This document shows, in pieces, positions 1 through 28,149 of a DNA stretch of 28,149 nt (position 1 is the stretch's first letter; every line of letters starts with the position of its first letter). The position numbers and the translations under genes were made by a program. The notes below the pieces were generated by a model. It was not told where the DNA came from. It searched no databases and saw only the letters and a program-made list of their open reading frames with translations. This stretch comes from a virus. The DNA lies in IMG/VR virus record IMGVR_UViG_3300042868_011342, positions 1-28,149 of that record. One strand, 5' to 3'.

Positions 1-52
1 GCCCCTCGGCGCTGGATACTCGTGGGGTACTCATCGCCAGATTATAACCCCC
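1..52. other. Left genome end, probable cos-side sequence
   Basis: These bases follow the HNH stop codon and reach the window edge. They contain a perfect minus-strand TATAAT (46 to 41) and most of the arm ATAACCCCCC (44-53), which is the inverse complement of GGGGGGTTAT at 28118-28127. If the ends are joined, about 100 bases separate the HNH gene from the small terminase gene, which is where cos lies in HK97-type phages. The assignment rests on gene order, not on a recognised cos motif. Confidence 0.5.
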
Positions 53-69
53 CTACCTATGGCGGGTAA
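41..69 (-). promoter_or_regulatory. Candidate late promoter (perfect -10) at genome end
   Basis: The minus strand reads TATAAT at 46 to 41. With a 17-nt spacer, the -35 position holds TTACCC (69 to 64), a 3-of-6 match to TTGACA. Transcription would run off the left end and, only if the genome is circular, into the terminase operon, with a leader of about 80 nt. The -10 is seen directly; promoter activity is inferred. Confidence 0.4.
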
Positions 70-373
70 CGCGGCCATGGCACGGGCGGCATAACACCCG
101 TAGTAGGTGCTCGGGTACTACGGGGTTTTGCCCTGGGTGCAGGGGGGTAATGTGGTCTACGGTTAGGTTATCCCGTGCGCCGCACGCCTCGCACCATGGG
201 CGCTTGGCGCGTAGCAGCGCCGATAGTTTGCGCCATGCTGGGTCGGTGTATACCGTAGGGCCGCGCTCTCGGCCCCGCTTGGCAACGATAGCCCCGGCGC
301 ACTTGGCGCAACGGTTGCCTTGCCGCTGCAATACCCCGCACGTTAGGCAAGCACGGGCAAACCGTAGCGGCAT
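53..373 (-). CDS. HNH endonuclease, packaging-associated
   Basis: This 106-residue protein has two zinc-binding parts. The N-terminal half carries CxxC pairs at residues 10/13 and 22/25. The C-terminal half is an HNH ββα-metal core: C61/C64, D73-H74 (in VDHITPL), H89 where the family often has Asn, and C95-x2-C98-H99. HNH proteins next to terminases assist cos cleavage in HK97-like phages, a known family role. Here it is the last gene of the transcription unit and would lie just upstream of the small terminase in a circular genome. The start overlaps the previous stop (TAATG) and is preceded by AAGAGGTA. A homing-type HNH is the alternative, but the position favours packaging. Confidence 0.85.
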   Translation of the reverse strand: MPLRFARACLTCGVLQRQGNRCAKCAGAIVAKRGRERGPTVYTDPAWRKLSALLRAKRPWCEACGARDNLTVDHITPLHPGQNPVVPEHLLRVLCRPCHGRVTRHR

Positions 374-774
374 TACCTCTTAGCCTTAAAGGCGGGCAAT
401 GGTAGTAGCGGCGCAATAACCGGGGCGAGGGCATCGGCTACCCGCTCGGTTTCGGTATCCCATAGGCTATTTAATAGTTCGTAGGCTTGGCTACCTAGTA
501 CCCCTTCGAGGCGCTCAACCATACGCTCAACCGCGGCGTTATGCACGTGCAATAACTCATGGGTAAGTATGTTGCGCTGGTGCTCGGGGGCCTCCTTAAA
601 AAACTCATTGCTTAACCGTATGGTGGCTACCCATAGGTTTTGGCTTACCTCAACGTCGGCCCAGGAATCGTCGGGGGGTAAATCGGGGCTTACCTTAATA
701 CGCCATTGGCGTAGGTTAAGGGTAGGCAATGCGGCGTTAAGGTAGCGCTCGGCTTGGTTTCTCATGGCTGGCAT
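373..774 (-). CDS. Zincin-like protein with HELLH motif
   Basis: From the start at 774 the protein has 133 residues. It carries THELLHVHN with the HExxH zinc signature at residues 72-76, followed by an acidic helix (DTETERVAD, about 106-114) that could give the third ligand. The fold suggests an SprT/ImmA-type zincin, but the substrate is unknown. An open extension to 900 runs through a hairpin-rich leader and overlaps the previous gene, so I reject it; ATG at 765 is a second possible start. Neither start has a good Shine-Dalgarno. The only purine-rich stretch (GGGCGG) is inside a hairpin arm at 780-787, suggesting structure-controlled translation. The stop overlaps the HNH start. Confidence 0.65.
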   Translation of the reverse strand: MPAMRNQAERYLNAALPTLNLRQWRIKVSPDLPPDDSWADVEVSQNLWVATIRLSNEFFKEAPEHQRNILTHELLHVHNAAVERMVERLEGVLGSQAYELLNSLWDTETERVADALAPVIAPLLPLPAFKAKR

Positions 775-779
775 TGTAG

Positions 780-836
780 CCGCCCGCGGCTGGGAGGAAG
801 CAGCCGCGGGCGGGGGGCCGCCCGCAAAGGGGCGGC
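780..836 (-). promoter_or_regulatory. Attenuator-like alternative RNA hairpins in leader
   Basis: On the minus transcript four arms follow one another: GCCGCCC (836-830), GCGGGCGGC (825-817), CCGCCCGC (813-806) and GCGGGCGG (787-780). Arm 1 pairs with arm 2 (7 bp). Arm 3 pairs with arm 4, extended to a perfect 13-bp stem (813-801 with 792-780) with an 8-nt loop. Alternatively, arm 2 pairs with arm 3 (8 bp, loop CCCC). This 1:2+3:4 versus 2:3 logic is that of an attenuator. Arm 4 ends six bases before the ATG at 774, so it could hide the ribosome site. No U-run follows either fold, so a classical intrinsic terminator is unlikely. Confidence 0.55.
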
Positions 837-856
837 GTGCGCGTATCTTAATACAC

Positions 857-1336
857 CTAGCCCCACGTATCGGGGGAAGCCACGCGTTTAGTTGCGGCAT
901 TGCTCGCCAACGGTAATGGCGAGGCGGGGCGCATAACGCACGTAGCGTCGCGGCATCGAGGGGTTAGCCCCTGCTCGGTATCGCCCCCGGTGCACCAATC
1001 GCAAAAGCGGTTAATAAGCATTTGTAGGCGGCGGCTCTCCCGCTCGGCGGGCGTAAGTTCTGGGCGGCGGTTTGGCATGTAAGGCTTGGGCAACTCGCTA
1101 CGCTCTACCCAATCGTCGTCCTCAAAGGGGCCAAAGGCTACGGCAAATAGGCGGCAAAACTCGGCGCTCGGGCGTCGCTCGGCTTTGGCATAGGAGCGGA
1201 TTGTGCGCCCCGTAATGGTTAGCCCTAACTCAACCATGCGGGCGGCTACCTTATCGCTGGCTAAGTTGGCGCTGCTATTTGGGTAGGCTTCAAGCACGCG
1301 CTTACCAATAACGTCGGGCCTCAATGCTCGGCTCAT
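857..1336 (-). CDS. Helix-turn-helix protein with C-terminal zinc knuckle
   Basis: The protein has 159 residues. Residues 25-70 look like a helix-turn-helix (SDKVAARMVELGLTITGRTI, then a conserved-looking SYAKAERRPS segment), so it probably binds DNA. Residues 112-133 form a C-x2-C-x12-C-x4-C knuckle (CDWCTGGD...CRDATC followed by MRP), a small zinc motif seen in various phage proteins. It may be a transcriptional regulator, but it lacks a CI-type cleavage domain and stands inside the operon with no divergent partner. The start at 1336 overlaps the previous stop (ATGA); the longer open frame to 1399 is not favoured. Directly downstream is the attenuator-like leader. Confidence 0.5.
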   Translation of the reverse strand: MSRALRPDVIGKRVLEAYPNSSANLASDKVAARMVELGLTITGRTIRSYAKAERRPSAEFCRLFAVAFGPFEDDDWVERSELPKPYMPNRRPELTPAERESRRLQMLINRFCDWCTGGDTEQGLTPRCRDATCVMRPASPLPLASNAATKRVASPDTWG

Positions 1337-1797
1337 GGCTGCACCATAAGCATAATGTCGGCAACGCCATAGCCCAGCGGGTAGCCCGCTGCACGCCATA
1401 CGGCGGGTGCCAAATCTATTAGCCGCTCATCGCCTCGGCGCTTTGTGCCGGTGCAGGAGCACCAATCAACCACCCGCACGTTTACGGTTACGCCCGTAGC
1501 CAAAAAGGTTATAGCCACGCCGTAGTTTTGCTTCCAGCGGTCGGGTACCAGCGCGCGCAACCCTGGGCCCGCGGCGCCGTAAAGGGTAATGCCCTTACGG
1601 GTATACCAGGTAGTTTGGTTGCCGCGCTCGGCATCAAACCAGGTAGCCGTACCAAATAGCGGGGTTTCGTAAAGCGTTGGCGTGCGAGGCTCCGTTAATA
1701 GTTGCGGTACGTACGGGGCGGGCGGCTCGCCCGTAGGCGCTGGGTTGCTCCATGCACCTATGGCAAGCAATAGGGCTAGGGCTAGGGCTATTTTCAT
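1333..1797 (-). CDS. Exported double-psi beta-barrel (RlpA-like) protein
   Basis: This is a 154-residue protein. A short Lys-plus-hydrophobic N-terminus (MKIALALALLLAIGA) is a typical signal peptide. Residues 48-154 resemble the double-psi beta-barrel of RlpA and expansin-like proteins: FGTATWFD, then GVAITFL, VRVVDWCSC (Asp111) and RLIDLAPAVW (Asp128) with GYGVADI. RlpA is a septal lytic transglycosylase, so this product may act on or bind peptidoglycan after export. It is far from the lysis cassette and sits in the early region after a nuclease gene (ATGA overlap). Catalytic activity is uncertain because I cannot match every RlpA active-site residue. Confidence 0.65.
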   Translation of the reverse strand: MKIALALALLLAIGAWSNPAPTGEPPAPYVPQLLTEPRTPTLYETPLFGTATWFDAERGNQTTWYTRKGITLYGAAGPGLRALVPDRWKQNYGVAITFLATGVTVNVRVVDWCSCTGTKRRGDERLIDLAPAVWRAAGYPLGYGVADIMLMVQP

Positions 1798-2150
1798 GGC
1801 TGCTTACCAAACCAGGCTACAAAATCGTCAAGGTCGAGCACAATAATAGTACGGCGCCGCTTGCCGGGCCCTGGGCTATCGCCTACTACCAGCGCTGCTA
1901 GTTGGTCGCCCTTGACGGTAATCGAGCGTAGCCAACCATCGTAGCGCTCGGAATAGGCGCCGCCTACCTTGCATTGCACCGCTACCCAATCGGTAGCCAC
2001 GTCGGTTTTACCGCCGAACTGGCCTACCCTCGCGCCGTTAAGGCGCTTGGCGACTTCGCGCTCAAAGGCATTGCCGCGTTGGCGCGCCGTGCGCCCTCGG
2101 CGCTTACGGGCGTTTTGCTCATCAACGTTTAAGTCGTTCGTTGCGGTCAT
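1794..2150 (-). CDS. PD-(D/E)XK nuclease, Holliday-resolvase-like
   Basis: The protein has 118 residues from ATG 2150, which overlaps the stop of the small gene before it (ATGA). An N-terminal basic stretch is followed by the nuclease core: RQRGNAFEREVAKRL (Glu30 candidate), GGKTDVATDW (Asp50) and VAVQCKVG (Gln59-x-Lys61). This is the QxK variant of the PD-(D/E)XK active site, with the family's following WLRSI helix. Phage proteins of this kind are often called Holliday junction resolvases or restriction-endonuclease-like nucleases. A role in resolving branched DNA during recombination or packaging is plausible alongside the Rad52/YqaJ pair, but not proven. Confidence 0.6.
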   Translation of the reverse strand: MTATNDLNVDEQNARKRRGRTARQRGNAFEREVAKRLNGARVGQFGGKTDVATDWVAVQCKVGGAYSERYDGWLRSITVKGDQLAALVVGDSPGPGKRRRTIIVLDLDDFVAWFGKQP

Positions 2151-2311
2151 CGTGCTAAAAAGCCTAGCGTAATGGCGGTTGCAACACTCAACGTAAACCA
2201 CGTAAATACCAGCCCTGGGTTTGTGCGGGGCTGGGTTAGGGCAATCCAACCCATAACTAGCGCTATGGCCGTATGGCAAACAATGAGGGCAACCGCTACG
2301 GCGCTAATCAT
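2147..2311 (-). CDS. Small two-helix membrane protein
   Basis: This hidden 54-residue frame fills the gap between 2150 and 2308. It begins MISAVAVALIVCHTAIAL and ends TLGFLAR. Two hydrophobic segments (about residues 2-24 and 35-53) flank a short polar turn (TQPRTNPG), so it should span the membrane twice. Both ends use ATGA overlaps: its start lies in the stop of the previous gene and its stop in the start of the nuclease gene. That junction pattern is the best evidence that it is real. It is close to an exported peptidoglycan-related protein, so a second holin-like or envelope function is possible. No family recognised. Confidence 0.65.
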   Translation of the reverse strand: MISAVAVALIVCHTAIALVMGWIALTQPRTNPGLVFTWFTLSVATAITLGFLAR

Positions 2312-2601
2312 TGCGGCAACTCAACAATGCGGGCAATGAGTACCCGAGCGCCGAACGGCGGCAATAGGATAGGGTCGCCTACTACGTGCAACGCGCCTTG
2401 GGTAATAAGCGCTTCAACCAGGTCGGTATTTTCGCTATACGCCTTGCAGAAAAAAAACCCTACGGGCGGCAACTCGCCGTCTACGTAGGTGCTCAATCGA
2501 GCGTACGGCATGCCGTCGGTATCAAATACCTCCGCAACGTTGCCGCGCTGGTTAAGCCAAAGGCCCTCCCCTTTGTACGTTGCCTTACGTACGGTTGCCA
2601 T
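2308..2601 (-). CDS. Hypothetical protein, 97 aa
   Basis: No family recognised. The product is a small soluble-looking protein with short beta-type segments (GLWLNQRGNVAEVFD, GVAR-like turns) and no membrane segment. ATG 2601 shares its A with the previous stop (TGATG) and follows GGGGGTAAGT, a usable ribosome site; the GTG one codon earlier is a less likely start. The gene sits in a run of tiny tightly coupled genes between the methyltransferase and the nuclease, so an accessory early role is the most that context suggests. Confidence 0.55.
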   Translation of the reverse strand: MATVRKATYKGEGLWLNQRGNVAEVFDTDGMPYARLSTYVDGELPPVGFFFCKAYSENTDLVEALITQGALHVVGDPILLPPFGARVLIARIVELPQ

Positions 2602-2795
2602 CACTTACCCCCGCCAATGCACGCCTTATGGCGCCAATCCCAGGTATGCGTAGCCTTGGCGCCCTCAAAGGTTTTAATAAGTACGCGGCTGGCTTTGGCG
2701 TGCGACTCAATCGGCTTATTGCACGCGGTGCAATCGCCGCCATGCCATACCGGCGCTTTGGTTGCGCCGCCCTTTTTGGTTTTTACTCCCGCCAT
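2601..2795 (-). CDS. Small zinc-binding protein
   Basis: This 64-residue basic protein has a CTAC pair (residues 22 and 25) and, near the C-terminus, WRHKACIGG (His/Cys pair), a likely CCHC-type zinc site. It could bind nucleic acid, but no family is recognised. The start is inside the last 13 nt of the methyltransferase gene, with a strong GGGGAGGAG upstream, so it is translated together with it. It may be a partner of the methyltransferase or simply an accessory early protein. Confidence 0.55.
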   Translation of the reverse strand: MAGVKTKKGGATKAPVWHGGDCTACNKPIESHAKASRVLIKTFEGAKATHTWDWRHKACIGGGK

Positions 2796-4231
2796 AGTTC
2801 CAACTCCTCCCCTGCGTTAATGGTGGGCGGCTCGCCCGCCAGGTTCGAGCCGCCCAGGGCTACGGTATCTGGCTGCTCGGCTAACGTCAAGCCTAAGCCC
2901 GCTTGGGCTACGGCAATGCGGCCGTTAATAATCTTTACGTACTCGGCCTCTCGCTCGCACCCAATCCAGGCTACGCCCTCTTGGATAGCGGCAACGGCGG
3001 TAGTACCCGAGCCCATAAAGGGGTCGAGGATAACCGAGCCTTTGCGGGCAACCATGCGGATTAAGTACGCCATTAAGGCAACCGGCTTAACCGTAGGGTG
3101 CGTATTGGCGCGGGGCTTTGACTCTCGCCCTCCATCGCGTAGGGCGCCCGTGCCCGCTACCTCGGTGTTAAACCCATCAAGCCCAAAGTTACGTTCGGCC
3201 CTCGCCGCCTTGGCTACGTAGAAAAACCGCGACGCCCCGCCGCTATCGCCATACGGCAAGCCCGAGGGTTGCGGGGTGTTTAGCCCATCGCCGTAGGTAT
3301 TTACCGCCTTAGCACCGTCTTTAACCGTATGAAAAAACCGCGAGGCCCCGCCGCTATCATTATGCCCGCGTACCCCTGGTTGCCGCGTATGCAGCCCCCA
3401 CCCCTCGGATTCTGGCCCCGCTTGCATCATTGCCGCTTGGCTTACACTCTCGCCGCTTTGCTCATCAAGCATTGCGGCCGCCTCCTCATCGAGCAATACG
3501 TTGGCTGGCCAACGGCCGTTTACGGCGTTGCCCTCAACGTTGCCAAACCGTATGCCATACACCCCGTTAGCCGTGCTAATACCGCCGGCATTATTAAAGC
3601 GTTCCTCGGTGCCAACGCGGGTAGCGTTAATGTTTATTGCGCCCGTACCGTAGCGCTGCACGTTTTCGGCAACCGTGCCAATAAGCGGCTTACGCGCCAT
3701 AACGATAGGCTCGACCGCCGGCTTTAACGCCGTGCCCCAACCTTCCCAATCGCGCGCGGCATCGGTTGCGGGTGCGGTTAAGTAATCGGTTTTACCTACG
3801 GTGCCGCTCTCATAAAGCGTATTGGCCTTAGTTGACTTTTCGCGGCTATTGGCATTACGCCCTAGTTTTACGCGCTCGGCGCCCGCGGCCTTATCTATCG
3901 CCTTACTTACGTCAAGGCTTTTTGGGAAGCCCGAGCCGTAAAGCCATAGTAGGCAATCGCGGATTTCAAACCCGGCGTCCTCAACGCCCGCCGCTAGGCG
4001 GTGGTAGGTGCGGGTGCCGCCAAAAGCAAGCAGGTAGCCGCCCGGCTTTAACACTCGGTACGCCTCGGCGGCCCATTGTGCCGTCCATTGCTGGAAGCCT
4101 AGCGGCGTGCCGTAGTTATCCCAATCCTTACCCATAAAGGTAAGCCCGTACGGCGGGTCGGTAATAACGGCGTCGACGCTCTCGGCATCGAGGGTACGCA
4201 TTTGCTCTACGCAATCGCCAATAAGCAGCAT
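2783..4231 (-). CDS. Beta-class DNA (N6-A or N4-C) methyltransferase
   Basis: The 482-residue enzyme shows catalytic motif IV DPPYGL at residues 25-30 near the N-terminus, preceded by MLLIGDCVEQM. The AdoMet-binding motif I, DPFMGSGTT, is near residue 403, after HPTVKPVALM. Order IV-target region-I defines the beta class, and DPPY points to amino methylation of adenine or cytosine. The middle 120-370 is long and probably holds target recognition; its specificity cannot be read. The start at 4231 follows TAGC of the previous gene and AAAGGGGG. It may protect phage DNA from host restriction, which is interesting given the missing palindromes of this genome. Confidence 0.9.
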   Translation of the reverse strand: MLLIGDCVEQMRTLDAESVDAVITDPPYGLTFMGKDWDNYGTPLGFQQWTAQWAAEAYRVLKPGGYLLAFGGTRTYHRLAAGVEDAGFEIRDCLLWLYGSGFPKSLDVSKAIDKAAGAERVKLGRNANSREKSTKANTLYESGTVGKTDYLTAPATDAARDWEGWGTALKPAVEPIVMARKPLIGTVAENVQRYGTGAININATRVGTEERFNNAGGISTANGVYGIRFGNVEGNAVNGRWPANVLLDEEAAAMLDEQSGESVSQAAMMQAGPESEGWGLHTRQPGVRGHNDSGGASRFFHTVKDGAKAVNTYGDGLNTPQPSGLPYGDSGGASRFFYVAKAARAERNFGLDGFNTEVAGTGALRDGGRESKPRANTHPTVKPVALMAYLIRMVARKGSVILDPFMGSGTTAVAAIQEGVAWIGCEREAEYVKIINGRIAVAQAGLGLTLAEQPDTVALGGSNLAGEPPTINAGEELELWRE

Positions 4232-4232
4232 G

Positions 4233-4526
4233 CTACGCCCCCTTTGCAGCGGCATACGCCGCGCGCCTTTTAGCGTTGCGTGCATCGCGGTTAGCCGCGT
4301 GCCAAGCCCGCATACGCGCTTTGTATGCCTCCTTATGGCGCTGGTACTTTTCGCGCTGGTGCTTACGCGCCGCCTCGGGCGTGCGGTAGCCGCGGGTTTT
4401 AACCTTTGGTGCCTTTACCCCCTCGGCCTCGCATGCCAAGCATACGGGGCTACCATCGCGGTAAAACTCGGCGTCGGCTGGCCAATCCTCTTGGCAACCA
4501 ATACAAACTTTGCCCTCCTCAACCAT
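4233..4526 (-). CDS. Zinc-ribbon protein with basic helical tail
   Basis: The protein has 97 residues. The N-terminus has two CxxC pairs (VCIGCQEDW and VCLACEAEG, about residues 8-32), forming a zinc ribbon. The C-terminal half is very basic and helical, rich in Arg, Lys, His and Tyr (KHQREKYQRHKEAYKARMRAW). This layout fits a nucleic-acid binding protein; proteins of this type are frequent in phage early regions and sometimes match HNH-like families, but no HNH core is visible. It lies four bases after its upstream neighbour and two before the methyltransferase, and has a GAGGAAT ribosome site. Confidence 0.55.
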   Translation of the reverse strand: MVEEGKVCIGCQEDWPADAEFYRDGSPVCLACEAEGVKAPKVKTRGYRTPEAARKHQREKYQRHKEAYKARMRAWHAANRDARNAKRRAAYAAAKGA

Positions 4527-4530
4527 GGCG

Positions 4531-5736: not shown

Positions 5737-5756
5737 AAACCCTCCTCCGGTATTGG

Positions 5757-5788: not shown

Positions 5789-5795
5789 TGGCTAA

Positions 5796-6999: not shown

Positions 7000-7936
7000 T
7001 AAGCCCCCCATCGCGCACGATAAAGCGCCGGCTACCCGCGCGCTCCTTGGTAAATGGCTGCACCTGCTCGGGCGTAGCGCCGAGGCTCTCGGCTACGGCT
7101 CGCCAATCGGTTACGGCGCTAGGGCGCGCTTGGCGCCAATACACCGTCCACCCCTGGCCCGTTAGCCCCGCCTTTTCGGCAATGGCCTCCTTTAATACCA
7201 TCTCCAAGGCATCGCGCTTTTGCTCTAAAAAGTGCAACTCGGCGCTGGTTTCTTGGTATTGCCGTAGCACCCGCTCATGGGCTGCATCGGCAACGGCGAA
7301 CTCCTCGGTGGCTTGGGGCGTAGCCTCGGCGTAGGCCATGGCATCGAGCGCTTCTAGGCTGGGCGCGGTGTTTGTATCTACTAACTCTAAAAACCGCGTA
7401 GCCGCCGCTTGCATGGTTTCCCAAAGTGCGGGGTCAAACTGCACCCGCTCAACCTTAAAAACCAGCCCGCCGAGCAGGGCGGCAACGTCGCACCACGGCG
7501 CGCCAACTATGCCCATTTGCCAGGTGGTTTGTAGTACTACCTCTGGGGGTACGGGCCAGGTGCTCCAACGCGGCGAGGCGCTGGTTTTAATCTCAACAAT
7601 GCCAGGGCTACCCGCAATGGTGCGGTCAAGGCTTGCCATAAACCGCGGGTTAGTTTTAAGGCGTACTACGCCATTGCTCTTACGCAACTTAACGCCGCGC
7701 TCCTGCTCGTACCAGGTGCCTACGGCGTCCTCCAGCAATACGCCCCGGTTGGCGGCGGCGCCTACCTTTTGCGGCTCAACCGCGCCCGTTTTCTCGGCCC
7801 ATAGCCCATAGGGCGTTTTATAGGGGCTTACCCCCATAACGGCCGCCATGTCGCTAGCGCCCAGCCCTCGGCGCCGTAGTTCGAGCCACTCGGGGCTACG
7901 TTGCGCCGCCTTTACAAACTCATACCGCTTAGCCAT
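6992..7936 (-). CDS. YqaJ-type viral recombinase exonuclease
   Basis: The 314-residue protein matches the YqaJ family: RSPEWLELRRRGLGASDMAAVMGVSPYKTPYGLWAEKTG at residues 13-51, then RGVLLEDAVGTWYE, ASLDR (Asp104), VEIKTS (Glu115-x-Lys117) and a Gln-containing helix near 136-140. These residues make a PD-(D/E)XK active site like lambda Exo. It would resect double-strand ends 5' to 3' and hand single strands to the Rad52-like protein. The C-terminal part is a coiled coil (212-255) plus a small domain. Start 7936 has GGAGGGTAAAA and an 8-nt overlap with the zinc-ribbon gene; the frame to 8059 is rejected. Confidence 0.9.
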   Translation of the reverse strand: MAKRYEFVKAAQRSPEWLELRRRGLGASDMAAVMGVSPYKTPYGLWAEKTGAVEPQKVGAAANRGVLLEDAVGTWYEQERGVKLRKSNGVVRLKTNPRFMASLDRTIAGSPGIVEIKTSASPRWSTWPVPPEVVLQTTWQMGIVGAPWCDVAALLGGLVFKVERVQFDPALWETMQAAATRFLELVDTNTAPSLEALDAMAYAEATPQATEEFAVADAAHERVLRQYQETSAELHFLEQKRDALEMVLKEAIAEKAGLTGQGWTVYWRQARPSAVTDWRAVAESLGATPEQVQPFTKERAGSRRFIVRDGGLND

Positions 7937-8123
7937 TTTTACCCTCCGCTTTTCTATCCTTTTTGGCCCAGCCCGAGCCCTTAAATACCAGCCCCGGCGG
8001 GCTAAATAGCCGCCATAGTTTGCCGCCGTCGGCCTCATGCCGTAGGGCCTTGCGCCCATCGGCGGGGGCTACCTGCTCAACCACCGCGCCGCATTTACGG
8101 CATTGGTAGTCATACGTGGGCAT
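7929..8123 (-). CDS. FmdB-type zinc-ribbon protein, second knuckle lost
   Basis: This 64-residue protein opens MPTYDYQCRKCGAVVEQ, the signature of FmdB family zinc ribbons. The family's closing motif is also present (WRLFSPPGLVFKGSGW). The usual second CPxCG pair is replaced by RHEADGG, so only one half of the ribbon has cysteines. Whether His or Asp substitute as ligands is unclear. FmdB proteins are putative regulators and no function is established in phages. The start is fixed by GAGGGGGTACCT; the open frame to 8300 is an extension through the previous gene. Confidence 0.75.
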   Translation of the reverse strand: MPTYDYQCRKCGAVVEQVAPADGRKALRHEADGGKLWRLFSPPGLVFKGSGWAKKDRKAEGKNG

Positions 8124-17139: not shown

Positions 17140-18525
17140 TTAGCGCGGGGGTACGGTGTTGCCAACGATGCGCCCGAGGGAATCCCTAATAACACCGTCA
17201 ACGTCTTTGCCGCCAATGTTAATGCTGTACTTTGCCTCCATCGGGTTTTGCGAAATGCCGGTTCCCTGGTAAGGCGTATTGACGGTAGGAATAATAAACC
17301 CGCCACCATAAGGCCCAGCGCCCATTGCCAACGCAAAGTTTTTGCCAAAGTCGCCGCCCGGATTCATGGCATCGGCGTTGCGTTTATCTAATGCCTTTTG
17401 GTAGGCGTCGGCCTCGCCCGAGGCCGTTAAAAAGTCGGCAATGCCTTTAACTAGGTTGCCAATAACGGTAACTACGCCGGTAATAATGTCAAATAGCACG
17501 CCGATAGACGCGCCAATGGCATTAACGGCAAAGGCAAGCGGCCCGTTACCATCGCCCCAAAGGGCGCCTACAATAGTACCAATCGAGGTAAGCAGCCCAT
17601 CGGGCCCAGTAAGCACGCCAATAAACTTGCCTACCTTCTCGCCTAGCATCTCAAAAATAGGGCCAACTACCTTGCCTACGGAATCAAACACCCCGCCCGG
17701 CTTGGTTAGGTTTGTAATGTTGTCCTGGATAATCGGCCCAAAAGCGTTTACTAACTTGCCGCCAATGTCCTGCACAATCGGCGCCAACGTATCAAGCCCA
17801 GCGGCAACCCCTGGCAATACGTTTTTATTTAGGAAGTCGAGCCCATCGGCTGCAATAGGCAAAAACTTAGCGCCAAAATCCTCCATAATGTTATTAACGG
17901 TGTTTTGCGCGCGGGTAAACTTACCGCTTACGGTGTTAGCAGCGGCTGCCGCCGAACCGCCATACTTTTTAGTAATCGCTGCCAGAATCTCGGTAGCCTT
18001 AGCGCCCTTTTTGGTTTGCACGCCCAAGCCTTTAAGGCCCTTTGTATTGCCCTGGTATGCCTTGCCAACTAGGGCGGTTGCCTCCTCTAAACTAATGTTT
18101 CGGGCGGCGGCTACGTCGGCGGCTACGTTCTGGATTTTTAGGGCATCGTTAAAGTTTTTGGTAAATGCCGTTGCCGTAATAAGGCTCTCGCGTACCTGGT
18201 CGTCGCTAAATGCTAGTTCCTCTAACTTGGTAGTTTGCGTTTCAATCGCGGCGGTGTTGGCATCGGTAAGCATGCCGCGGGTTTTAAGTACGCCGTTAAG
18301 GCGCGCAATCTGCTTTTCCTCATCGGCGGCGGCCGCAACCGCTGCAACCGTAAACCCTGCTACGGCGGTAGCAATGCCGAGGGCGCCAACGGCTGCGGTT
18401 TGCAGCCCGCTACCTACCGCCTTGCCCGCCTTCGATAGCGTGCCAAAACCCTTGCCTACCTTTTTAAGCGTAGGGGTAGCATTGTCTACGGCCTTAATAA
18501 CAATGTTGGCCATGTTGCTATTCAT
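17140..18525 (-). CDS. Tape measure protein
   Basis: The 461-residue protein is Ala/Gly/Val-rich and helical. It begins MNSNMANIVIKAVDNATPTL with a clear tape-measure N-terminal pattern (KKVGKGFGTLSKAGKAVGSGLQ). Hydrophobic segments (about 38-65, and GTIVGALWGDGNGPLAFAVNAIGASIGVLFDIITG) follow. At the usual 0.15 nm per residue it would set a tail of about 70 nm, short for a siphophage. The ATG at 18513 is an alternative start. A long plus-strand frame lies opposite, but it is a codon-bias shadow. Confidence 0.85.
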   Translation of the reverse strand: MNSNMANIVIKAVDNATPTLKKVGKGFGTLSKAGKAVGSGLQTAAVGALGIATAVAGFTVAAVAAAADEEKQIARLNGVLKTRGMLTDANTAAIETQTTKLEELAFSDDQVRESLITATAFTKNFNDALKIQNVAADVAAARNISLEEATALVGKAYQGNTKGLKGLGVQTKKGAKATEILAAITKKYGGSAAAAANTVSGKFTRAQNTVNNIMEDFGAKFLPIAADGLDFLNKNVLPGVAAGLDTLAPIVQDIGGKLVNAFGPIIQDNITNLTKPGGVFDSVGKVVGPIFEMLGEKVGKFIGVLTGPDGLLTSIGTIVGALWGDGNGPLAFAVNAIGASIGVLFDIITGVVTVIGNLVKGIADFLTASGEADAYQKALDKRNADAMNPGGDFGKNFALAMGAGPYGGGFIIPTVNTPYQGTGISQNPMEAKYSINIGGKDVDGVIRDSLGRIVGNTVPPR

Positions 18526-18527
18526 GC

Positions 18528-19109
18528 TTAGCCCCTGCCTTTGCGGTATTTAATCTTGCCTTCCAGGTAGGCAACGACGGTATTGGTAATGGTACTCGTT
18601 GCCTTATCCTGCACGCTGCTATTTTGTGTAGCCTCCACAACAAAGTTATTAGCCGGTACTCGGCCCTTGCCGCTGCTACCAGCCTTGGCTTTACGCTCGG
18701 CATAGGATACGCCCGCGGCTACCTCGCTCCAACTCATTACCGGATTACTAGCCCGCCCTACGCTGGCTTGGCTACCCTTAACTTTGTGCCCGCTAATCAC
18801 AAACCACCGATACCACGCGCCCTTACTATCGCCCCGGCTCGCGCCCGCCTTTACGCCTACTACGGCGCTGGGCTTATTAAAGCGCCCTTTACGGGCTGCT
18901 ACGGCGGCCTTTAAGCGCCCCGTGCGGCTCGGTGCCTTGGCCTTTACTGGCTTAACCATGGTGCGGGCTGCATTAAGGGTGGCTAGTTGCAGCATGGCGG
19001 CAAACTTACGCGGGTCGCCCGATTCTAAAAAGCCAAGGCGTACCTGGTTAAGCCCGCTTAGGCTTTTGGTATCTACGTATACTTTTACCGAGTCCTTACC
19101 GACGGCCAC
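18528..19109 (-). CDS. HK97 gp10-like tail component
   Basis: The 193-residue basic protein contains AAMLQLATLNAARTMVKPVKAKAPSRTGRLKAAV, the core of gp10-like (HK97) proteins that join or complete the tail. It begins with GTG at 19109 behind a strong AAAAGAGGTAAAGC. The position after the tail chaperone is later than usual: this family normally precedes the tail tube. Its first 14 nt overlap the end of the frameshifted chaperone. Confidence 0.65.
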   Translation of the reverse strand: MAVGKDSVKVYVDTKSLSGLNQVRLGFLESGDPRKFAAMLQLATLNAARTMVKPVKAKAPSRTGRLKAAVAARKGRFNKPSAVVGVKAGASRGDSKGAWYRWFVISGHKVKGSQASVGRASNPVMSWSEVAAGVSYAERKAKAGSSGKGRVPANNFVVEATQNSSVQDKATSTITNTVVAYLEGKIKYRKGRG

Positions 19110-21851: not shown

Positions 21852-21853
21852 AG

Positions 21854-22123: not shown

Positions 22124-22126
22124 GCC

Positions 22127-22357: not shown

Positions 22358-22378
22358 GCGTACCCCCTTAATGGCATT

Positions 22379-22406
22379 GGGGGGCTTGGCGCATGCCAAA
22401 CCCCCC
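22379..22406 (-). promoter_or_regulatory. Strong hairpin after capsid gene
   Basis: On the minus strand GGGGGGTTTGGC (22406 to 22395), loop ATGC, then GCCAAGCCCCCC (22390 to 22379) make a 12-bp stem with a single U:G pair. It is 28 bases after the capsid stop. No U-run follows, so a partial block, RNase processing point or mRNA stabiliser for capsid message is more likely than a classical terminator. Confidence 0.6.
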
Positions 22407-22434
22407 GTTGCCTATCTAAAAGCCGAGTTGGCTA

Positions 22435-23574
22435 TTAGACGTTTGCGCCCTTAAAGGACTTAACGGCCGAGGCTTCGATAAGCCCGGTTACGCCACGTAC
22501 CTGGATACGGTACGTAATAAGCCCGTAGTTAAAGGCAAAGTCGGCGCTGGAAGCGATTTCTACACCGCCCACAACAACCGTTTTTACGCTGCCCAAATCT
22601 CCAAAGACCAAAGAGAGGGCTTCGTCGCCCGTATCGGCAAGGGCGCCCGAGTAAATCGGGAAGCCAAGCACGGTATCAGGGCGGCCAAGGTCGCCTGGTA
22701 CAAAGATTGGTCGGTTCTGGCTATCAAGCAACTTCATAATGCCGCCAATGGTGGCATCGTTAGCAATAAAGCCGCGCTTTGGGGCTCGGCGGTACTGCTG
22801 CTTAACCGAGTAAATAAGGTCAACCAGGTCGGCATACACCGGCGCAACGGCTGCGCCCTGCTTACCAACCGTAGCCGCTGCGGCAACGGCTGGGCCGGCA
22901 ACTGCACCGTGTGCAATACCGACTTCCTGGCCCGCCTTATCGGCAACAAAAGCCGCAATGTCGAAGGCCGCATCTTGCACCAGTTCCTGGCTAATCTGGA
23001 GGAGCGTTGCGTACTTCGCTGGCGTAAGCGAAAGGTTAGAAAGCGTACCGTCGCTCTCGTTAATCTGGCCCGCCTCGGAAACTGCCGCGGCTGTGCCCAG
23101 CGCGGTTACGCGCGGGAGCAAAATGTTATTGCCGTTCGAGGCGCGGATAATCTCAACCACGTCCGCATTAAGGAACGGGTTCACCTGCCCGGCAACAACG
23201 TTTACGCGGTTTGCAACGGTAACTGGGTTGCCCAGACCGGTGCTCTTAGTAACGTCGCGTACCTCAAAGGTGCGCTCGCCGCCCTCGCGGGCAAGCCGGC
23301 GGAGTTCGGCTGCATCGTCGCTAGCCTCAACCTTTGGCGCCATGGCCGTTGCAAACTCGGCGCGTGCCGAGTCGGCGGCGGCTCGGGCCTCGGTGGCCTC
23401 GCGCTCGGACTTAATAACGTTGGCAAGGGTTGACGCCTCGGTTGTGAGGGCATCAAATCGAGCCTGGGCCTCGCCCGTTAGGGCCTCGCCCTTATCGGCG
23501 GTAGCCTCAACCAGGGCCGTAGCCTCGGTCAAAAGCGCCGCGCGCTTTTCGCTAAGTTTCTTAATGTCTGCCAT
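22435..23574 (-). CDS. Major capsid protein (HK97 fold)
   Basis: The 379-residue protein has an N-terminal helical, charged delta-domain-like part (residues 1-100, cut off by the protease in this family), then GNPVTVANRVNVV, FLNADVVEIIRASNGNNILLPRV and typical HK97 core segments (TPAKYATLLQISQELVQDAAFDIAAF, RRAPKRGFIANDATIGGIMKLLDSQNRPIFVP, FGDL). A cleavage site near residues 100-110 is expected. It follows the protease gene after a 115-base gap, and its leader is A-rich (GCGAGAAAAACAAAA) instead of a consensus ribosome site. Confidence 0.9.
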   Translation of the reverse strand: MADIKKLSEKRAALLTEATALVEATADKGEALTGEAQARFDALTTEASTLANVIKSEREATEARAAADSARAEFATAMAPKVEASDDAAELRRLAREGGERTFEVRDVTKSTGLGNPVTVANRVNVVAGQVNPFLNADVVEIIRASNGNNILLPRVTALGTAAAVSEAGQINESDGTLSNLSLTPAKYATLLQISQELVQDAAFDIAAFVADKAGQEVGIAHGAVAGPAVAAAATVGKQGAAVAPVYADLVDLIYSVKQQYRRAPKRGFIANDATIGGIMKLLDSQNRPIFVPGDLGRPDTVLGFPIYSGALADTGDEALSLVFGDLGSVKTVVVGGVEIASSADFAFNYGLITYRIQVRGVTGLIEASAVKSFKGANV

Positions 23575-23689
23575 TTTTGTTTTTCTCGCTTTCTTACTAT
23601 TGGTTTTTACTAAATGTTTTGTACCGCTCGGGGGGATAACTAACCGCGGGCTCGCCTACTAGGGGCGGCGGGGCGGTGCCTCGTGCCCG
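23575..23689 (-). other. Longest intergenic region, upstream of capsid gene
   Basis: These 115 bases run from the protease stop to the capsid ATG. The first half is GC-rich and could fold. The second half is A-rich on the minus strand, with AACATTTAGTAAAAACCAATAG. I find no convincing -35/-10 pair, though an independent capsid promoter or a processing site is plausible. Confidence 0.4.
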
Positions 23690-24922
23690 TTAAATACTGT
23701 CGCTTTCCAGTTTGGCAAGGGCAAGCCGAGCCGCGGCAATGCTGCGGTCAATCTCAACCGGCTTTGGCGCAAGCGCCATACGCACGGCGTCGATAACCTC
23801 AACCTCGTCGGGGCTTAGGCTCTTACCTGCTTTTACTGTTTCAAGCGTCGAGATAAGCCGCTCGGCGTTTACGCCAATGCGGGCCTCGGCAACTTTGCGC
23901 ACGGCGCTAAGGCCAAGGGTTGCGGGGTAGGCGGGCTGGTGCCCGCTCAAAATAGAAACCTCAAAAAGGTTTACCTCGGTAAGGGTGCGGGTTTCGCCGT
24001 CCCAAGTATCGCCGCCCTTGGGCACCGTAAAGCCAAAACTCATACCCATAGCCTTAGCCTCGTGGGTAAGTTTGCTAATAACGGCGGCTGCATCGGGGTC
24101 GGCTGGGTCTAGTTTGGCCTCAACGCGCAACCCCTGCAAATCCTCGGTTAGGGTAAGGCGCCCGCTCGCGGTGCTTGCAAGCATGCGGCTTTCATCGTGC
24201 CCGTGCAGGAACTTAACCACGCGCTCGGCCTTGGCTACGCGGTTAAGCGTACGCTTAAATGCACCTGGTTTAATGGTTTCGGTAAAGGGCAACCCAGCGG
24301 AAGGTTCGCCGTATAGGGCGGCGTAGCCGGTAAAAACCTTTTGCCCGTCCTGCTCGGTAAGCCTAAACTCGCCAAGCCCAAGGTTGCGGGTTTCAATGTC
24401 CTTAGCGCTACCGCGCGTTGGCGCGCCCTGCTCGGCGGGTGCGGCTGGGCTTTCCTCGGGGGCGGCCTCCTCGGCGGTATCCTCGGTTACGTCGTTTGGC
24501 TGGTTTTCCTCTTGCAGGTACTCGGTAGGGGTTTTGGCTTCTAGCCCCAACTCCCTAGCCATAGCGATTACCTCGGGGTCGTTATCTATGGCGCACTCAA
24601 TCCCGTTAGGGGTAGCCTCGCCCTTAATGCCGTACTCGGCAATAAGCGCTTCATACTTAGCGCGCTTAAAGGCAAGCCCTACGTTAGGGCCGCGCCCGGC
24701 GCCCTCAAAATCATTAAGGTATACGGCCTCTACGCCCGCTACGCCGTACTCCTGCAACCATGCGCGGGTTTCCTCTAACCGCTCAATAGGGCGCGCGCTT
24801 ACGACGATAAGTTGCGCATCGCCCTCCATTACCTCGGCGTTAAGGTAGTTAATAAGCGGCGTATTAGGCTCGTTATTATCGAGCGCTAGCGTGCCGTCAA
24901 TGTCTACGATTTTATACGCCAT
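23690..24922 (-). CDS. HAD phosphatase-prohead protease fusion
   Basis: The 410-residue protein is a single uninterrupted frame. Residues 1-135 form a HAD-type phosphatase like the polynucleotide 3'-phosphatase domain: IVDIDGT (Asp7, Asp9), VVSARP (Ser42), Lys86-Lys89 and IDNDP (Asp113, Asp115). An acidic Pro/Ala linker (137-175) follows. Residues 180-340 are the HK97-type U35 protease: LHGHDESRML (His240 or 242), MGMSFGF (Ser295), LFEVSILS (Glu321) and GHQPAYP. The protease matures the head shell. The HAD part may ride into the prohead, but its substrate is unknown. The portal gene overlaps by 11 nt. Confidence 0.85.
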   Translation of the reverse strand: MAYKIVDIDGTLALDNNEPNTPLINYLNAEVMEGDAQLIVVSARPIERLEETRAWLQEYGVAGVEAVYLNDFEGAGRGPNVGLAFKRAKYEALIAEYGIKGEATPNGIECAIDNDPEVIAMARELGLEAKTPTEYLQEENQPNDVTEDTAEEAAPEESPAAPAEQGAPTRGSAKDIETRNLGLGEFRLTEQDGQKVFTGYAALYGEPSAGLPFTETIKPGAFKRTLNRVAKAERVVKFLHGHDESRMLASTASGRLTLTEDLQGLRVEAKLDPADPDAAAVISKLTHEAKAMGMSFGFTVPKGGDTWDGETRTLTEVNLFEVSILSGHQPAYPATLGLSAVRKVAEARIGVNAERLISTLETVKAGKSLSPDEVEVIDAVRMALAPKPVEIDRSIAAARLALAKLESDSI

Positions 24923-26123
24923 TATTATTATCTCCCTCTGGTTGCTCGCCTACAATGCCAATGTTTAGCGGCTGCCTAAACTCGTCGCCCGCTGGGCCAA
25001 TCGGCGCCCGGTCTTCAAGTTGCCTAATCTCATTAAGGCTTAACCAGCCGTTATTAAGCGCTACCGCGTACGCATCGTACCGCTCCTTAGTCATTGGGCG
25101 TAGCAGCGCATCAACGTTAAACTTTACAAAGGTAGTATTACCTACAATAAGCCGTTGTAGCCCAGCCTCCACGCGTGCGATAAGTGGGCCAAGCCCAAGG
25201 CGTAGCCACTCGGCACTTACTACTTCCAGGCTGTTGTATGAGGTATTGCCGCCCGGGTATTGCAAAAGGTGCAGCGGTACGCCGTACAATCGAGCGATAG
25301 CCTCGGTACCCCATGCCATAGTTTCGATCATCTGCATGTCGCTAATCTTGGCGCTAAGGCTGGCAAAATCCGCCCCCCCGCTCAATACCGCTACGCGGTG
25401 CATGCGGTCGACGCCTTCGTGGTTGCGCCCAAAGGCGGCCCGCAATGTTTGGGCTTGCTCTTGGGTAAGTTCGCCCGGCACCTTAATAATGCCGCTAGGG
25501 GCTGCGCCCTGCTCATAAAACTTAGCGGCGTATACCTGGGTTGCGGAGGCAAGCCCGAGCGTTACGCGGTGGTGCTCAACGGGGCTAAGGCCGCGTAGGT
25601 TTTCGCCGTAGGCAAAAAGCGTAATGTGCACAATGGCGTCGGCGCCAAAAGTTGCCGCGCCCTCATTGCTAGTAATGCGATAGGTTGGCGTACCATCGTG
25701 CGCTTGGTGCACCTCAACCTTACGCGGGTCGAGCACGCGAACCTCCAACACCTCGCCCAAATCATTGCGTACGGTAAGCAGAAAGGCGTTCCCATCTAGG
25801 AGGAGGCTAGTAACGATACGGTGCCGCAAATCAAAACCCGTAAAGTTCGGATTATTTGGGATAGGGCGGTCAAACCATAGCGGGCGCCGTACGGTTCGGC
25901 GCTCGCCGTTATCCCTAATGTATGCGCCCCAAGGTAGGCTGGCTACGGTATCGGCGTAAAGTTTTACGGCCGCATACACCGCGCCAATGCTGGTGGCGTT
26001 ATCCTGGTTAATGGCAACGCCGGCTACGCGCCCGCCCGAGTCTTTCCACCAATCGTTAGCCCAGCCGCCGCCAATGGCGCGCTGCTCATTATCGCGCCCG
26101 AGAATACGGTCAATGATTCCCAT
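24912..26123 (-). CDS. Portal protein (HK97 family)
   Basis: The 403-residue protein has the portal pattern: VYAAVKLYADTVASLPWGAY near residues 49-68, NPNFTGFDLRHRIVTSLLLDGNAFLL, VHITLFAYGENLRGLSP, and IARLYGVPLHLLQ near the wing/stem, then the C-terminal NNGWLSLNEIRQLEDRAPIGPAGDEF. It forms the dodecameric ring at the DNA-entry vertex. AAGGAGTTT precedes the ATG, 9 nt after the terminase stop. Confidence 0.92.
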   Translation of the reverse strand: MGIIDRILGRDNEQRAIGGGWANDWWKDSGGRVAGVAINQDNATSIGAVYAAVKLYADTVASLPWGAYIRDNGERRTVRRPLWFDRPIPNNPNFTGFDLRHRIVTSLLLDGNAFLLTVRNDLGEVLEVRVLDPRKVEVHQAHDGTPTYRITSNEGAATFGADAIVHITLFAYGENLRGLSPVEHHRVTLGLASATQVYAAKFYEQGAAPSGIIKVPGELTQEQAQTLRAAFGRNHEGVDRMHRVAVLSGGADFASLSAKISDMQMIETMAWGTEAIARLYGVPLHLLQYPGGNTSYNSLEVVSAEWLRLGLGPLIARVEAGLQRLIVGNTTFVKFNVDALLRPMTKERYDAYAVALNNGWLSLNEIRQLEDRAPIGPAGDEFRQPLNIGIVGEQPEGDNNNGV

Positions 26124-26132
26124 AAACTCCTT

Positions 26133-27752
26133 TTATAGTTCGAGGTACTCAACCTTTGGCCGCGGCTTTTCTGCCGGCGTGCTACCTAGGGTAGCAGCCC
26201 TACCCCATGCCATGATAGTTGCCACGCACAAGTCTATTTTTTTGCCGCTATCTTTCCCCTTACGTACCTGCACCCCGTACCTAGTTTGGTAAGGCGTAGC
26301 GTTCATTACGTGCCGCGAAAGGCGGGGGTCGCCATCATGTTTAAGGCGGCCATTAACTACCGCATCGTAAAAGGCGGCGGTAGCCGGGGTCATACGGGCG
26401 GGGCTTTGCGGGTGCTCAACTACGGGCAAGCCCTCGGTTTGCCATCGCTCCATGGTGGCTTGCCAACGGTAGGGGTCGCAATCTATCTCCTTAACGGCGT
26501 AGGTTTTGCATAACTCAACCATGCGCAACTCTACCTCCTCAACGGGTACCCGCCAGGATAGGTCGTCGATAGGGCGCTCCCAATGCCCAAGTACAAACAC
26601 CGCCCCGTCGGTAATCCGCACGCCTACAATGGCCGTACTATCGTTAGAAAATGAGCCGTCAAACCCGATAACCAAAGGCTCGCCCTCGGCTAGCACTAGC
26701 GTTGCATCGGCGCACTTATCCCAGGTACCAGCCGGCAAAAAGGCGGCGCCGCTCGCCGTAAACTGGTTAAGGCGCTTGGTGCGAAACTCGGCCTCGGGGG
26801 TGCGCTTTTGCGCGCTGGTTAAATCATCAAGCGATAAAAGCGGCGGCTCGGATAGTAGCCCAGGGTTGGCTTGGGCCCATTTATCGGGGTTGCCGTAGGC
26901 ATCGTCGTCGGCCTCAAACCACGCCATGCCCAGGGTAGGGTCGTCGTTTTCGCCCGCAATGCGGCGGCGCGCCAACTGGTAAAGGGTGTAGGCAATCGAG
27001 TCCATGCCGGTTTGGTCGGTGCGTTGCCCAGCCGTAGTAATCGCCAAAAATAGCGGGCTGCGCCGTGCGCCCATGCTTAGGCTTAGCACGTCAAAAAGGT
27101 CGCGGTTTGGCCATGCCGCCAACTCATCGGCTAGTACCAGGGTTGCGCTTAGCCCCTCCTTGGTATACGCCTCCGAGGATAGCGCCCGCCAAATCGTACC
27201 CGTAGGCTTAAACTCTAACGTATCCCTAAATACCTTTATTTGCTCGGCAAGCATGGGGCTCATTTCAACCGCCCGCTTGGCGTGCGCCATAACTAGTTTG
27301 GCTTGGTCGCGGTCGGCGGCCGCGCTGTAAATCTCGCCGCCGTTATCCCCAAACAAACCCAGCGCCAAGGGCACCGTGGATAGCAGCGCGGTTTTGCCGT
27401 TTTTACGGGCGGCGCCAATCATGTAAAAGCGGTGCGTATAGGTACCGTCGGCTTTGCGGGCTAAGGCATGCCGTAATAACTCGCGTTGCCAGGGCCTAAA
27501 AACCATAGGCTCGCCCGATAAGCCTCCTATCGAGTCTTTGGCAATCGGTACCAGGGCCTCCCCAAACTCGGCTACCTGCTCGCCTTGGCTGCGCGCTAAA
27601 TCCTCAACCGAGGTAGGGGTTAGCCATCTTGGCGGCCATTGGGTAGGGCCGAGAACTTTTCCCGAAACTCCTCCAGCAATGTGCGCGCTTGCACCATTGC
27701 GATACCCAGCCTTGCCCGGTCGCTTGGCGTTAGCCCTAGTACGGTTAGCCAT
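26133..27752 (-). CDS. Terminase large subunit
   Basis: From ATG 27752 the enzyme has 539 residues. Its ATPase carries GAARKNGKT (Walker A, residues 113-121), LVLADE (Walker B, Asp209-Glu210) and TTAG (239-242). The nuclease has GFDGSFSND (Asp365), EIDCDPYRW (Asp424) and KIDLCV (Asp507), a Terminase_1-type layout. It translocates DNA and cuts at packaging ends. The start has AGAGGG and GGAGG just upstream, so the first 44 residues, basic and disordered, overlap the small subunit gene by 133 nt. The open frame to 27791 lacks such a site. Confidence 0.93.
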   Translation of the reverse strand: MANRTRANAKRPGKAGYRNGASAHIAGGVSGKVLGPTQWPPRWLTPTSVEDLARSQGEQVAEFGEALVPIAKDSIGGLSGEPMVFRPWQRELLRHALARKADGTYTHRFYMIGAARKNGKTALLSTVPLALGLFGDNGGEIYSAAADRDQAKLVMAHAKRAVEMSPMLAEQIKVFRDTLEFKPTGTIWRALSSEAYTKEGLSATLVLADELAAWPNRDLFDVLSLSMGARRSPLFLAITTAGQRTDQTGMDSIAYTLYQLARRRIAGENDDPTLGMAWFEADDDAYGNPDKWAQANPGLLSEPPLLSLDDLTSAQKRTPEAEFRTKRLNQFTASGAAFLPAGTWDKCADATLVLAEGEPLVIGFDGSFSNDSTAIVGVRITDGAVFVLGHWERPIDDLSWRVPVEEVELRMVELCKTYAVKEIDCDPYRWQATMERWQTEGLPVVEHPQSPARMTPATAAFYDAVVNGRLKHDGDPRLSRHVMNATPYQTRYGVQVRKGKDSGKKIDLCVATIMAWGRAATLGSTPAEKPRPKVEYLEL

Positions 27753-28102
27753 TTGTAAACCCTCTCCTCCGTTGCCGTGCGCATACCCCAAGCCGGGTGG
27801 GCATAGGCATAGTTTTTATCCGTATACAAAACCAGCCCGTCGCTTTCTAGCCTAGCGGTTAGTTGCGCTAGGAGCGCCTCATCGCGGCATAGCATCGTAA
27901 GCGCCTCGCGGTCGCTCTCGGCTAGCCAATCGCACGCCGTGGTAATCCTAGCCCAAACCCCTTGGGCAATCGGGTCTAGGCCCTCGGGCATGGTTGCGTA
28001 ATCGAGCGGTTGCACCCCTTTACCCTGCTTAGCCGGCATGCGGCTAGGCTGCAAGGTACCGCGCTTTGCCTTTACCTCATTGGGTATTGCCTTACGCCCC
28101 AT
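27620..28102 (-). CDS. Terminase small subunit (P27 family)
   Basis: The 160-residue protein begins MGRKAIPNEVKAKRGTLQPS and has KWLTVLGLTPSDRARLG near the C-terminus, both hallmarks of P27-type small terminases. It binds the packaging site and hands DNA to the large subunit. The start follows GGGGGG nine bases upstream, inside a 16-bp palindrome. It is the first gene of the structural operon and lies 47 bases from the right end. Confidence 0.85.
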   Translation of the reverse strand: MGRKAIPNEVKAKRGTLQPSRMPAKQGKGVQPLDYATMPEGLDPIAQGVWARITTACDWLAESDREALTMLCRDEALLAQLTARLESDGLVLYTDKNYAYAHPAWGMRTATEERVYKWLTVLGLTPSDRARLGIAMVQARTLLEEFREKFSALPNGRQDG

Positions 28103-28149
28103 GCTACAAAACCCCCCGGGGGGTTATTTTGCATGCGCACGTCAGCCCC
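28103..28149. other. Right genome end with palindrome before terminase
   Basis: The 47 bases hold the perfect palindrome AACCCCCCGGGGGGTT (28110-28125) directly upstream of the terminase start, including its ribosome site, and GGGGGGTTAT (28118-28127), inverse complement of 44-53. GCATGC (28131-28136) is also a palindrome. In the joined genome this belongs to the HNH-terminase gap and may include terminase-binding sequence. Confidence 0.45.

What the first reader, a model, noticed from the sequence alone, without database searches (positions are those of the whole stretch)
1..28149. Four 4-bp palindromes are missing or almost missing: AATT, AGCT, ATAT (none seen) and GATC (one)
Seen: in a by-eye scan I found no AATT, AGCT or ATAT and a single GATC (25326-25329), while the other 4-bp palindromes (TTAA, TATA, CTAG, GTAC, CATG, TGCA, TCGA, ACGT, GGCC and the C/G ones) are common. 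At about 56% GC, chance predicts roughly 100 each for GATC and AGCT and 60 each for AATT and ATAT. Codon choice seems to follow this: Ile after a codon ending in A is ATC, elsewhere often ATT; Ala after GTA is GCC or GCG, not GCT. Inference: long exposure to hosts with several restriction systems, beyond what one methyltransferase could protect.
Basis: partly seen in the sequence, partly recalled or inferred. Interest (0 to 1): 0.85.

Follow-up and report, generated by a model that had tools for sequence, protein, structure and literature searches.

The report
Phage genome purged of restriction-site words
This 28-kb freshwater phage genome has been emptied, by natural selection, of about a dozen short DNA words that look like restriction-enzyme targets, and close relatives have been emptied of different words, so the set each phage avoids appears to record which bacterial DNA-cutting defences it has recently faced.

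Summary
Confirmed and extended. AATT 0, AGCT 0, ATAT 0 and GATC 1 (25326-25329), against 73, 85, 31 and 54 in synonymous-codon shuffles. Non-palindromic words are also missing: CTGA/TCAG 3 vs 90, GTGA/TCAC 4 vs 87, GGATG 0, GAGAC 0. Some words are missing in one orientation only: on the coding strand ATGT is 0 while ACAT is 66.

About 100 IMG/VR relatives share the habit, but each clade lacks a different set (e.g. ACGT; CATG; GGCC+AATT+TTAA+CCWGG; AGCT+GATC). Terminase-bearing cellular control regions lack almost none. The words are mostly restriction-type sites.

The lexicon turns over fast. G001, 90.5% identical, has 61 aligned AGCT sites, of which the window keeps none; a tree shows G001 regained AGCT and began losing CGGCC within about 3.6% divergence. 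G001, unlike the window, carries an inserted C5-methyltransferase; two sister contigs with the same insertion but different target-recognition modules still lack AGCT. This fits "avoid it or methylate it", but the tolerant state was seen once, and a wider module-to-word test failed.

Best explanation: counterselection by host restriction systems, probably type II plus a type III-like one-orientation component. Hosts and enzymes are unknown. New variant of a known kind.

The parts
1..28149 (.). Whole phage record: lexicon-purged sequence (AATT 0, AGCT 0, ATAT 0, GATC 1, CTGA/TCAG 3, GTGA/TCAC 4, GGATG/CATCC 0, GAGAC/GTCTC 0, CTTAAG 0, GTTAAC 0; ATGT, CGTTT, GCTCT, ATCAA, CCATC missing on the coding (-) strand only)
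   Evidence: Counts and codon-shuffle null; the record is a 28149-bp IMG/VR virus contig
25326..25329 (.). The only GATC, in the portal gene; a GATC lies at the homologous position in L059
2783..4285 (-). N6/N4 DNA methyltransferase (DPPYG), conserved core with variable segments that differ from the G001 homologue
   Evidence: Pfam PF01555 E 8.4e-38; alignment; specificity unknown
7934..7947 (.). Site at which relatives G001, L234 and L237 carry an inserted ~1.1-kb C5-methyltransferase gene that the window, L308, L309 and L311 lack
   Evidence: HSP junctions; PF00145 in G001, E 1.2e-52
26133..27791 (-). Large terminase, used to find relatives
22435..23574 (-). Major capsid protein, used to find relatives and for the polarising tree
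   Evidence: PHROG 10 E 5.4e-39

Best explanation
The genome belongs to a group of phages (probably of freshwater actinobacteria and probably virulent) under very strong counterselection by restriction systems. Each phage genome that still carries an unprotected recognition word is cut on entry, so every copy of that word, across coding sequence and even at the cost of amino-acid choice, is replaced by whatever substitution the gene tolerates. Palindromic and both-strand asymmetric words fit type II and type IIS-like enzymes. Words missing in one orientation only fit type III-like enzymes, which need two inversely oriented sites, so clearing one orientation is enough. The word set changes quickly as the host population's enzymes change, and a word can return when the phage acquires a methyltransferase that protects it. 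Shown: the absences, that they exceed codon and composition nulls, clade-specific turnover, and polarised loss and gain. Inferred: restriction as the agent, the enzyme types, and the protective role of the C5-methyltransferase.
For: Codon-shuffle null. Clade-specific sets among ~100 relatives with 52-99% identical capsid or terminase. Primary taboo words resemble restriction sites: GGCC, CATG, ACGT, CCWGG, GGWCC, RCCGGY-like, CTTAAG, GTTAAC, AGCGCT, GGATG, GAGAC. Mean 2.06 taboo words per 12 kb in 35 relatives and 4-6 in the window, against 0.04 in 70 terminase-bearing regions of GTDB genomes. 61 AGCT sites in the 90.5%-identical G001, none kept in the window, while other palindromes keep 44-84%; substitutions at all four positions. 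Tree: G001 is sister to AGCT-free L059 (99-100% support), so AGCT was regained on the G001 branch; that branch lost 8 of 11 shared CGGCC sites and gained 11 AGCT, the L059 branch lost 0 of 3 CGGCC and gained no AGCT. C5-methyltransferase inserted in G001 but not in the window; L234 and L237 carry the insertion with different recognition modules and have 0 AGCT. One-orientation absence repeated in ten further contigs. Met followed by Phe/Tyr/Cys/Trp, which forces ATGT, is 0 where 11.7 are expected.
Against: No host or cognate restriction enzyme was found (one search gave only distant prophages). A dozen taboo words exceeds what most bacteria encode: at least 87% of REBASE bacteria have fewer than four type II enzymes (PMC7560954). 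I know of no enzyme cutting ATAT, nor of 4-bp type III sites, so ATAT and one-sided ATGT do not match known enzymes (memory, not tested). The coding-strand TC deficit (0.13 of expected across codon boundaries) is broader than any one site. C5-methyltransferase carriage alone does not predict AGCT tolerance: many carriers lack AGCT, and no recognition module maps cleanly to a word across 41 contigs. A large survey found type III avoidance rare and no systematic one-strand avoidance (PMC6286503).
Confidence: 0.82

Rival explanations
1. RNA-level or strand-specific selection: the words missing only on the coding strand (ATGT, CGTTT, GCTCT, ATCAA, CCATC, TC in general) are avoided because mRNA carrying them is cut, for example by sequence-specific host ribonucleases, while restriction acts only on the symmetric words.
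For: All genes lie on one strand and the missing orientation is on the mRNA strand; coding-strand TC across codon boundaries is 0.13 of expected versus 0.41 for GA.
Against: The symmetric palindromes need a DNA-level agent. The one-sided words differ between clades (GGGTC in the G018 clade; CCCAC and CCAAC in G013), which would need many different ribonuclease specificities.
Confidence: 0.25
2. Mutational bias: a word-specific mutator (a deaminase, or deamination of methylated bases) erased the words.
For: TC depletion resembles a deaminase context.
Against: AATT and ATAT contain no C or G. Lost AGCT sites became GGCT, AGTT, GGCG, AGCC, AACT, CGCT, TGCC and others; CGGCC losses are equally mixed. 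Loss is all-or-none and clade-specific.
Confidence: 0.03
3. Self-avoidance: the phage makes its own sequence-specific nucleases that destroy host DNA and must keep its own genome free of their sites.
For: HNH nuclease gene at 53-373.
Against: A dozen specificities would be needed; HNH genes beside terminases are common packaging genes (established knowledge), and no other nuclease of this kind was found in the genes tested.
Confidence: 0.04
4. AGCT tolerance in G001 comes from a change of host (no AGCT enzyme there) and the C5-methyltransferase insertion is coincidental.
For: CGGCC avoidance changed on the same branch, as a host shift would do; other C5 carriers lack AGCT.
Against: It is the only new DNA-modification gene seen in G001 relative to the window; sister contigs with other recognition modules at the same site still lack AGCT.
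Confidence: 0.5

Closest known systems
Restriction-site avoidance by dsDNA phages (orthodox type II sites; Rusinov et al. 2018, PMC6286503)
   Same: Palindromic type II-like words reduced to zero in a small, apparently non-temperate phage genome; near-complete elimination is reported in about one tenth of viral genomes
   Different: Here 6-12 words at once; non-palindromic and one-orientation words too, which that survey found absent or rare; and the set switches between relatives about 90% identical
Phage T7 and EcoP15I (type III): 36 sites, all in one orientation (PMC12707154)
   Same: An asymmetric word is kept freely in one orientation and absent in the other
   Different: Several words at once, one as short as 4 bp (ATGT); no type III enzyme is known for them and no host is known
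Multispecific C5-methyltransferases of Bacillus phages (Trautner et al. 1996, cited in PMC12707154)
   Same: Relatives of the window carry C5-methyltransferases with a conserved core and a mosaic array of exchangeable recognition modules
   Different: Absent from the window itself; specificities unknown; carried by phages that also avoid sites
Pontimonas phage phiPsal1 (MG835450)
   Same: Nearest named phage by terminase, 41.6% identity, similar size (31 kb)
   Different: No taboo tetramers under the same tests

Membership tests
Restriction-site avoidance (type II) | Words depleted beyond base composition and codon usage | tested here: met
Restriction-site avoidance (type II) | Removal by varied, mostly single substitutions, not by one mutation type | tested here: met
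Restriction-site avoidance (type II) | Host encodes an enzyme with that specificity | not testable with these tools
   Host not identified; one search found only distant actinobacterial and other prophages
Restriction-site avoidance (type II) | Avoidance relieved when the phage can methylate the site | tested here: inconclusive
   One contrast supports it (window, L234, L237 versus G001); module-to-word association across 41 contigs found nothing convincing
Type III orientation strategy (T7/EcoP15I) | Asymmetric word absent in one orientation and unconstrained in the other | tested here: met
   ATGT 4/90 vs ACAT 203/138, CGTTT 2/90 vs AAACG 94/103 pooled over the clade; repeated in ten contigs
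Type III orientation strategy (T7/EcoP15I) | Word is the 5-6 bp site of a host type III enzyme | not testable with these tools
   No host; ATGT is only 4 bp
Multispecific C5-methyltransferase phage (SPbeta-like) | Genome encodes a C5-methyltransferase | tested here: not met
   The window has no counterpart of the gene inserted at 7934-7947 in relatives; relatives G001, G008, G009 and G025 have it, and G012 has a different small C5-like protein

The most novel reading that the evidence does not exclude
A group of phages keeps a switchable 'taboo dictionary': it purges type II, type IIS-like and, in one orientation only, type III-like sites by the dozen, and trades avoidance of a given word against ownership of a matching methyltransferase module, so that the genome text of an uncultured phage can be read as a record of its hosts' restriction enzymes and of its own enzyme's specificity.
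Probability: 0.35. Interest if true: 0.85.

Novelty: new variant of a known kind. Interest (0 to 1): 0.7.

Why it matters
Restriction-site avoidance is known, but it was thought to be mainly a matter of type II sites, with type I and IIG sites not avoided and type III rarely so (PMC6286503). This group gives many replicated, closely related comparisons in which whole words appear and disappear, so the speed and strength of restriction selection can be measured. It also gives testable predictions of which enzymes uncultured hosts carry, and of what phage methyltransferases recognise, from sequence alone.

Tried and rejected
Mapping C5-methyltransferase recognition modules (8 module types) to tolerated words across 41 non-redundant contigs: nothing survives multiple testing, and contigs with the G001-type modules differ in AGCT (L231 0/44, L233 44/36), so I do not claim a module specificity. 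Linking C5 carriage in general to AGCT tolerance: G009 and G025 are AGCT-rich, but G008 avoids AGCTG and many carriers have none. Explaining CGGCC tolerance in the window by its N6/N4 methyltransferase: CGGCC has no adenine and the motif is DPPY, so unlikely. G019's N6/N4 methyltransferase: no word differs clearly from its relatives. Finding the host through prophages: best cellular hits 44-51% identity in various actinobacteria. Mutational bias and own-nuclease explanations: see rivals. D12-class methyltransferase: absent from all 25 relatives searched. Nearest DNA match among named phages: none.

Full report
OBSERVATION. Two hundred synonymous-codon shuffles that keep every protein and the codon usage give means of 73, 85, 31 and 54, and none reaches the observed value. 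The codon remark holds: Ile after A is ATT 0 / ATC 17, after G it is ATT 68 / ATC 0, and Ala after A is never GCT. The absence is wider than reported. CTGA/TCAG 3 vs 90 and GTGA/TCAC 4 vs 87 are as depleted as the palindromes, and GGATG, GAGAC, GACAC and ATTCG are at zero. With a maximal-order Markov model, which discounts depletion of shorter words, the primary missing words are AGCT, AATT, ATAT, GATC, GTGA, CTGA, GGATG, ACAAG, ACACG, CTTAAG, GTTAAC and CTTTAG.

ONE-ORIENTATION WORDS. On the coding strand (all genes lie on the minus strand) ATGT is 0 of 29 expected while its complement ACAT is 66 of 47; CGTTT is 1 of 30 while AAACG is 37 of 40. Pooled over the clade: ATGT 4/90 vs ACAT 203/138, CGTTT 2/90 vs 94/103, GCTCT 0/36 vs 103/130, ATCAA 1/46 vs 74/105, CCATC 2/37 vs 96/132. 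Ten further contigs repeat it. The purge reaches the proteins: Met followed by Phe, Tyr, Cys or Trp, which forces ATGT, is 0 against 11.7 expected, while relatives outside this clade have 3-10.

WHAT IT IS. The window is a 28,149-bp IMG/VR record of a siphophage-type genome: terminase, portal, protease, capsid, tape measure and tail fibre, Rad52-like annealase, YqaJ exonuclease, HNH, and an N6/N4 methyltransferase. No integrase was found among the genes tested. The nearest named phage is Pontimonas phage phiPsal1, terminase 41.6% identical. The host is unknown; cellular hits are distant, so 'actinobacterial' and 'freshwater' are inferences.

RELATIVES. Terminase and capsid searches gave about 100 related IMG/VR loci. 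They share the habit but not the words: window group AATT, AGCT, ATAT, GATC, STGA; G007 group AGCT, GATC; G012 group ACGT; G010 CATG; G008/G009 GGCC, AATT, TTAA, CCWGG, RCCGGY-like, CGAGG; G018 group CCWGG, GGWCC, CGAGG, TTAA, ATAT; G017 CCCG, ACGT, CATG, TTAA; G013 about a dozen tetramers including ACAG, CAGT, AAGT, GGAC, TCGA. phiPsal1 has no missing tetramer. On equal 12-kb pieces the family averages 2.06 such words and the window 4-6, against 0.04 in 70 terminase-bearing regions of GTDB genomes.

TURNOVER AND POLARITY. G001 (IMGVR_UViG_3300032291_003130) is 90.5% identical over 26.2 kb. It has 61 AGCT in aligned sequence; the window keeps none, while other palindromes are kept at 44-84%. 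The differences hit all four positions with transitions and transversions. In trees of two regions G001 is sister to AGCT-free L059 (support 99-100%), inside the AGCT-free clade, so G001 regained AGCT. On its branch (171 substitutions in 4.7 kb, about 3.6%) it gained 11 AGCT and lost 8 of 11 shared CGGCC sites; the L059 branch gained no AGCT and lost none of 3. Over the whole genome CGGCC is 124 in the window and 17 in G001. Loss of CGGCC at that speed looks like active purging; gain of AGCT is at least relaxation.

METHYLTRANSFERASES. G001 has a C5-methyltransferase inserted at the point corresponding to window 7934-7947. L308, L309 and L311 align through that point without it and have 0 AGCT; L234 and L237 have it at the same site, with different recognition modules, and have 0 AGCT. 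In G001 the tolerated contexts are HAGCTD only, and GAGCT is still absent, as if an enzyme with that specificity protected them. These proteins have a conserved core and a mosaic of exchangeable modules like multispecific phage enzymes. L044/L046 and G008/G009 also differ in AGCT, AGCTG and other words along with methyltransferase presence or modules. Against over-reading: across 41 C5-bearing contigs no module maps to a word after multiple testing, and L231 and L233 with similar modules differ in AGCT. I treat 'avoid it or methylate it' as a supported hypothesis, not a result.

MECHANISM. Host restriction is the best cause of the symmetric words: all-or-none, restriction-like, clade-specific, fast, varied substitutions. 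Type III restriction is the best cause of the one-orientation words because such enzymes need two inversely oriented sites and T7 escapes EcoP15I with all 36 sites in one orientation (PMC12707154). A 2018 survey found type I and IIG sites not avoided, type III rarely, and no systematic strand-asymmetric avoidance (PMC6286503), so this part would be new. An RNA-level cause is not excluded, and the general deficit of TC on the coding strand (0.13 across codon boundaries) remains unexplained.

VERDICT. It is an extreme, rapidly switching form of restriction-site avoidance, with two uncommon features: many asymmetric or one-orientation words, and coupling, seen once, to a methyltransferase insertion. 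Hosts and enzymes are needed to close the case.

Noticed in passing
L322 (IMGVR_UViG_3300006738_000002), 11300 bp: A phage contig carrying a relative of the window's N6/N4 methyltransferase lacks six palindromic tetramers at once: AGCT, GATC, ACGT, GTAC, CTAG, TCGA.
   Followed up: no
L228-L307 (loci with C5-methyltransferases): C5-methyltransferases with a conserved core and a shuffled array of at least eight recognition-module types, many in phage contigs that also lack several palindromes.
   Followed up: partly
2783-4285 and the homologue in G001: The N6/N4 methyltransferase is nearly identical in its core between window and G001 but has different, indel-rich variable segments, as if its recognition part had been exchanged.
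   Followed up: partly
25326-25329: The single GATC is shared by position with L059 (about 89% identical to the window) but absent from L040 and G001; a lone site may be tolerated.
   Followed up: partly
coding (-) strand, whole window: Dinucleotide TC is 0.13 of expected across codon boundaries and GA 0.41; GTC, TTC, GGA and TGT codons are little used. Not seen at this strength outside the window/G001 pair among the genomes compared.
   Followed up: partly
+ strand, e.g. 17441-18553: TGA occurs only 31 times on the + strand, so long spurious antisense ORFs (up to 370 aa) appear; gene callers could be misled.
   Followed up: no
L136/L073 (IMGVR_UViG_3300010885_055549): This relative lacks about a dozen non-palindromic tetramers (ACAG, CAGT, AAGT, AGTT, GGAC and others, all 0-1), an even richer lexicon than the window's.
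   Followed up: partly
23690-24922: The head maturation protease carries an N-terminal segment matching polynucleotide kinase-like PHROGs (residues 12-141), an apparent fusion.
   Followed up: no
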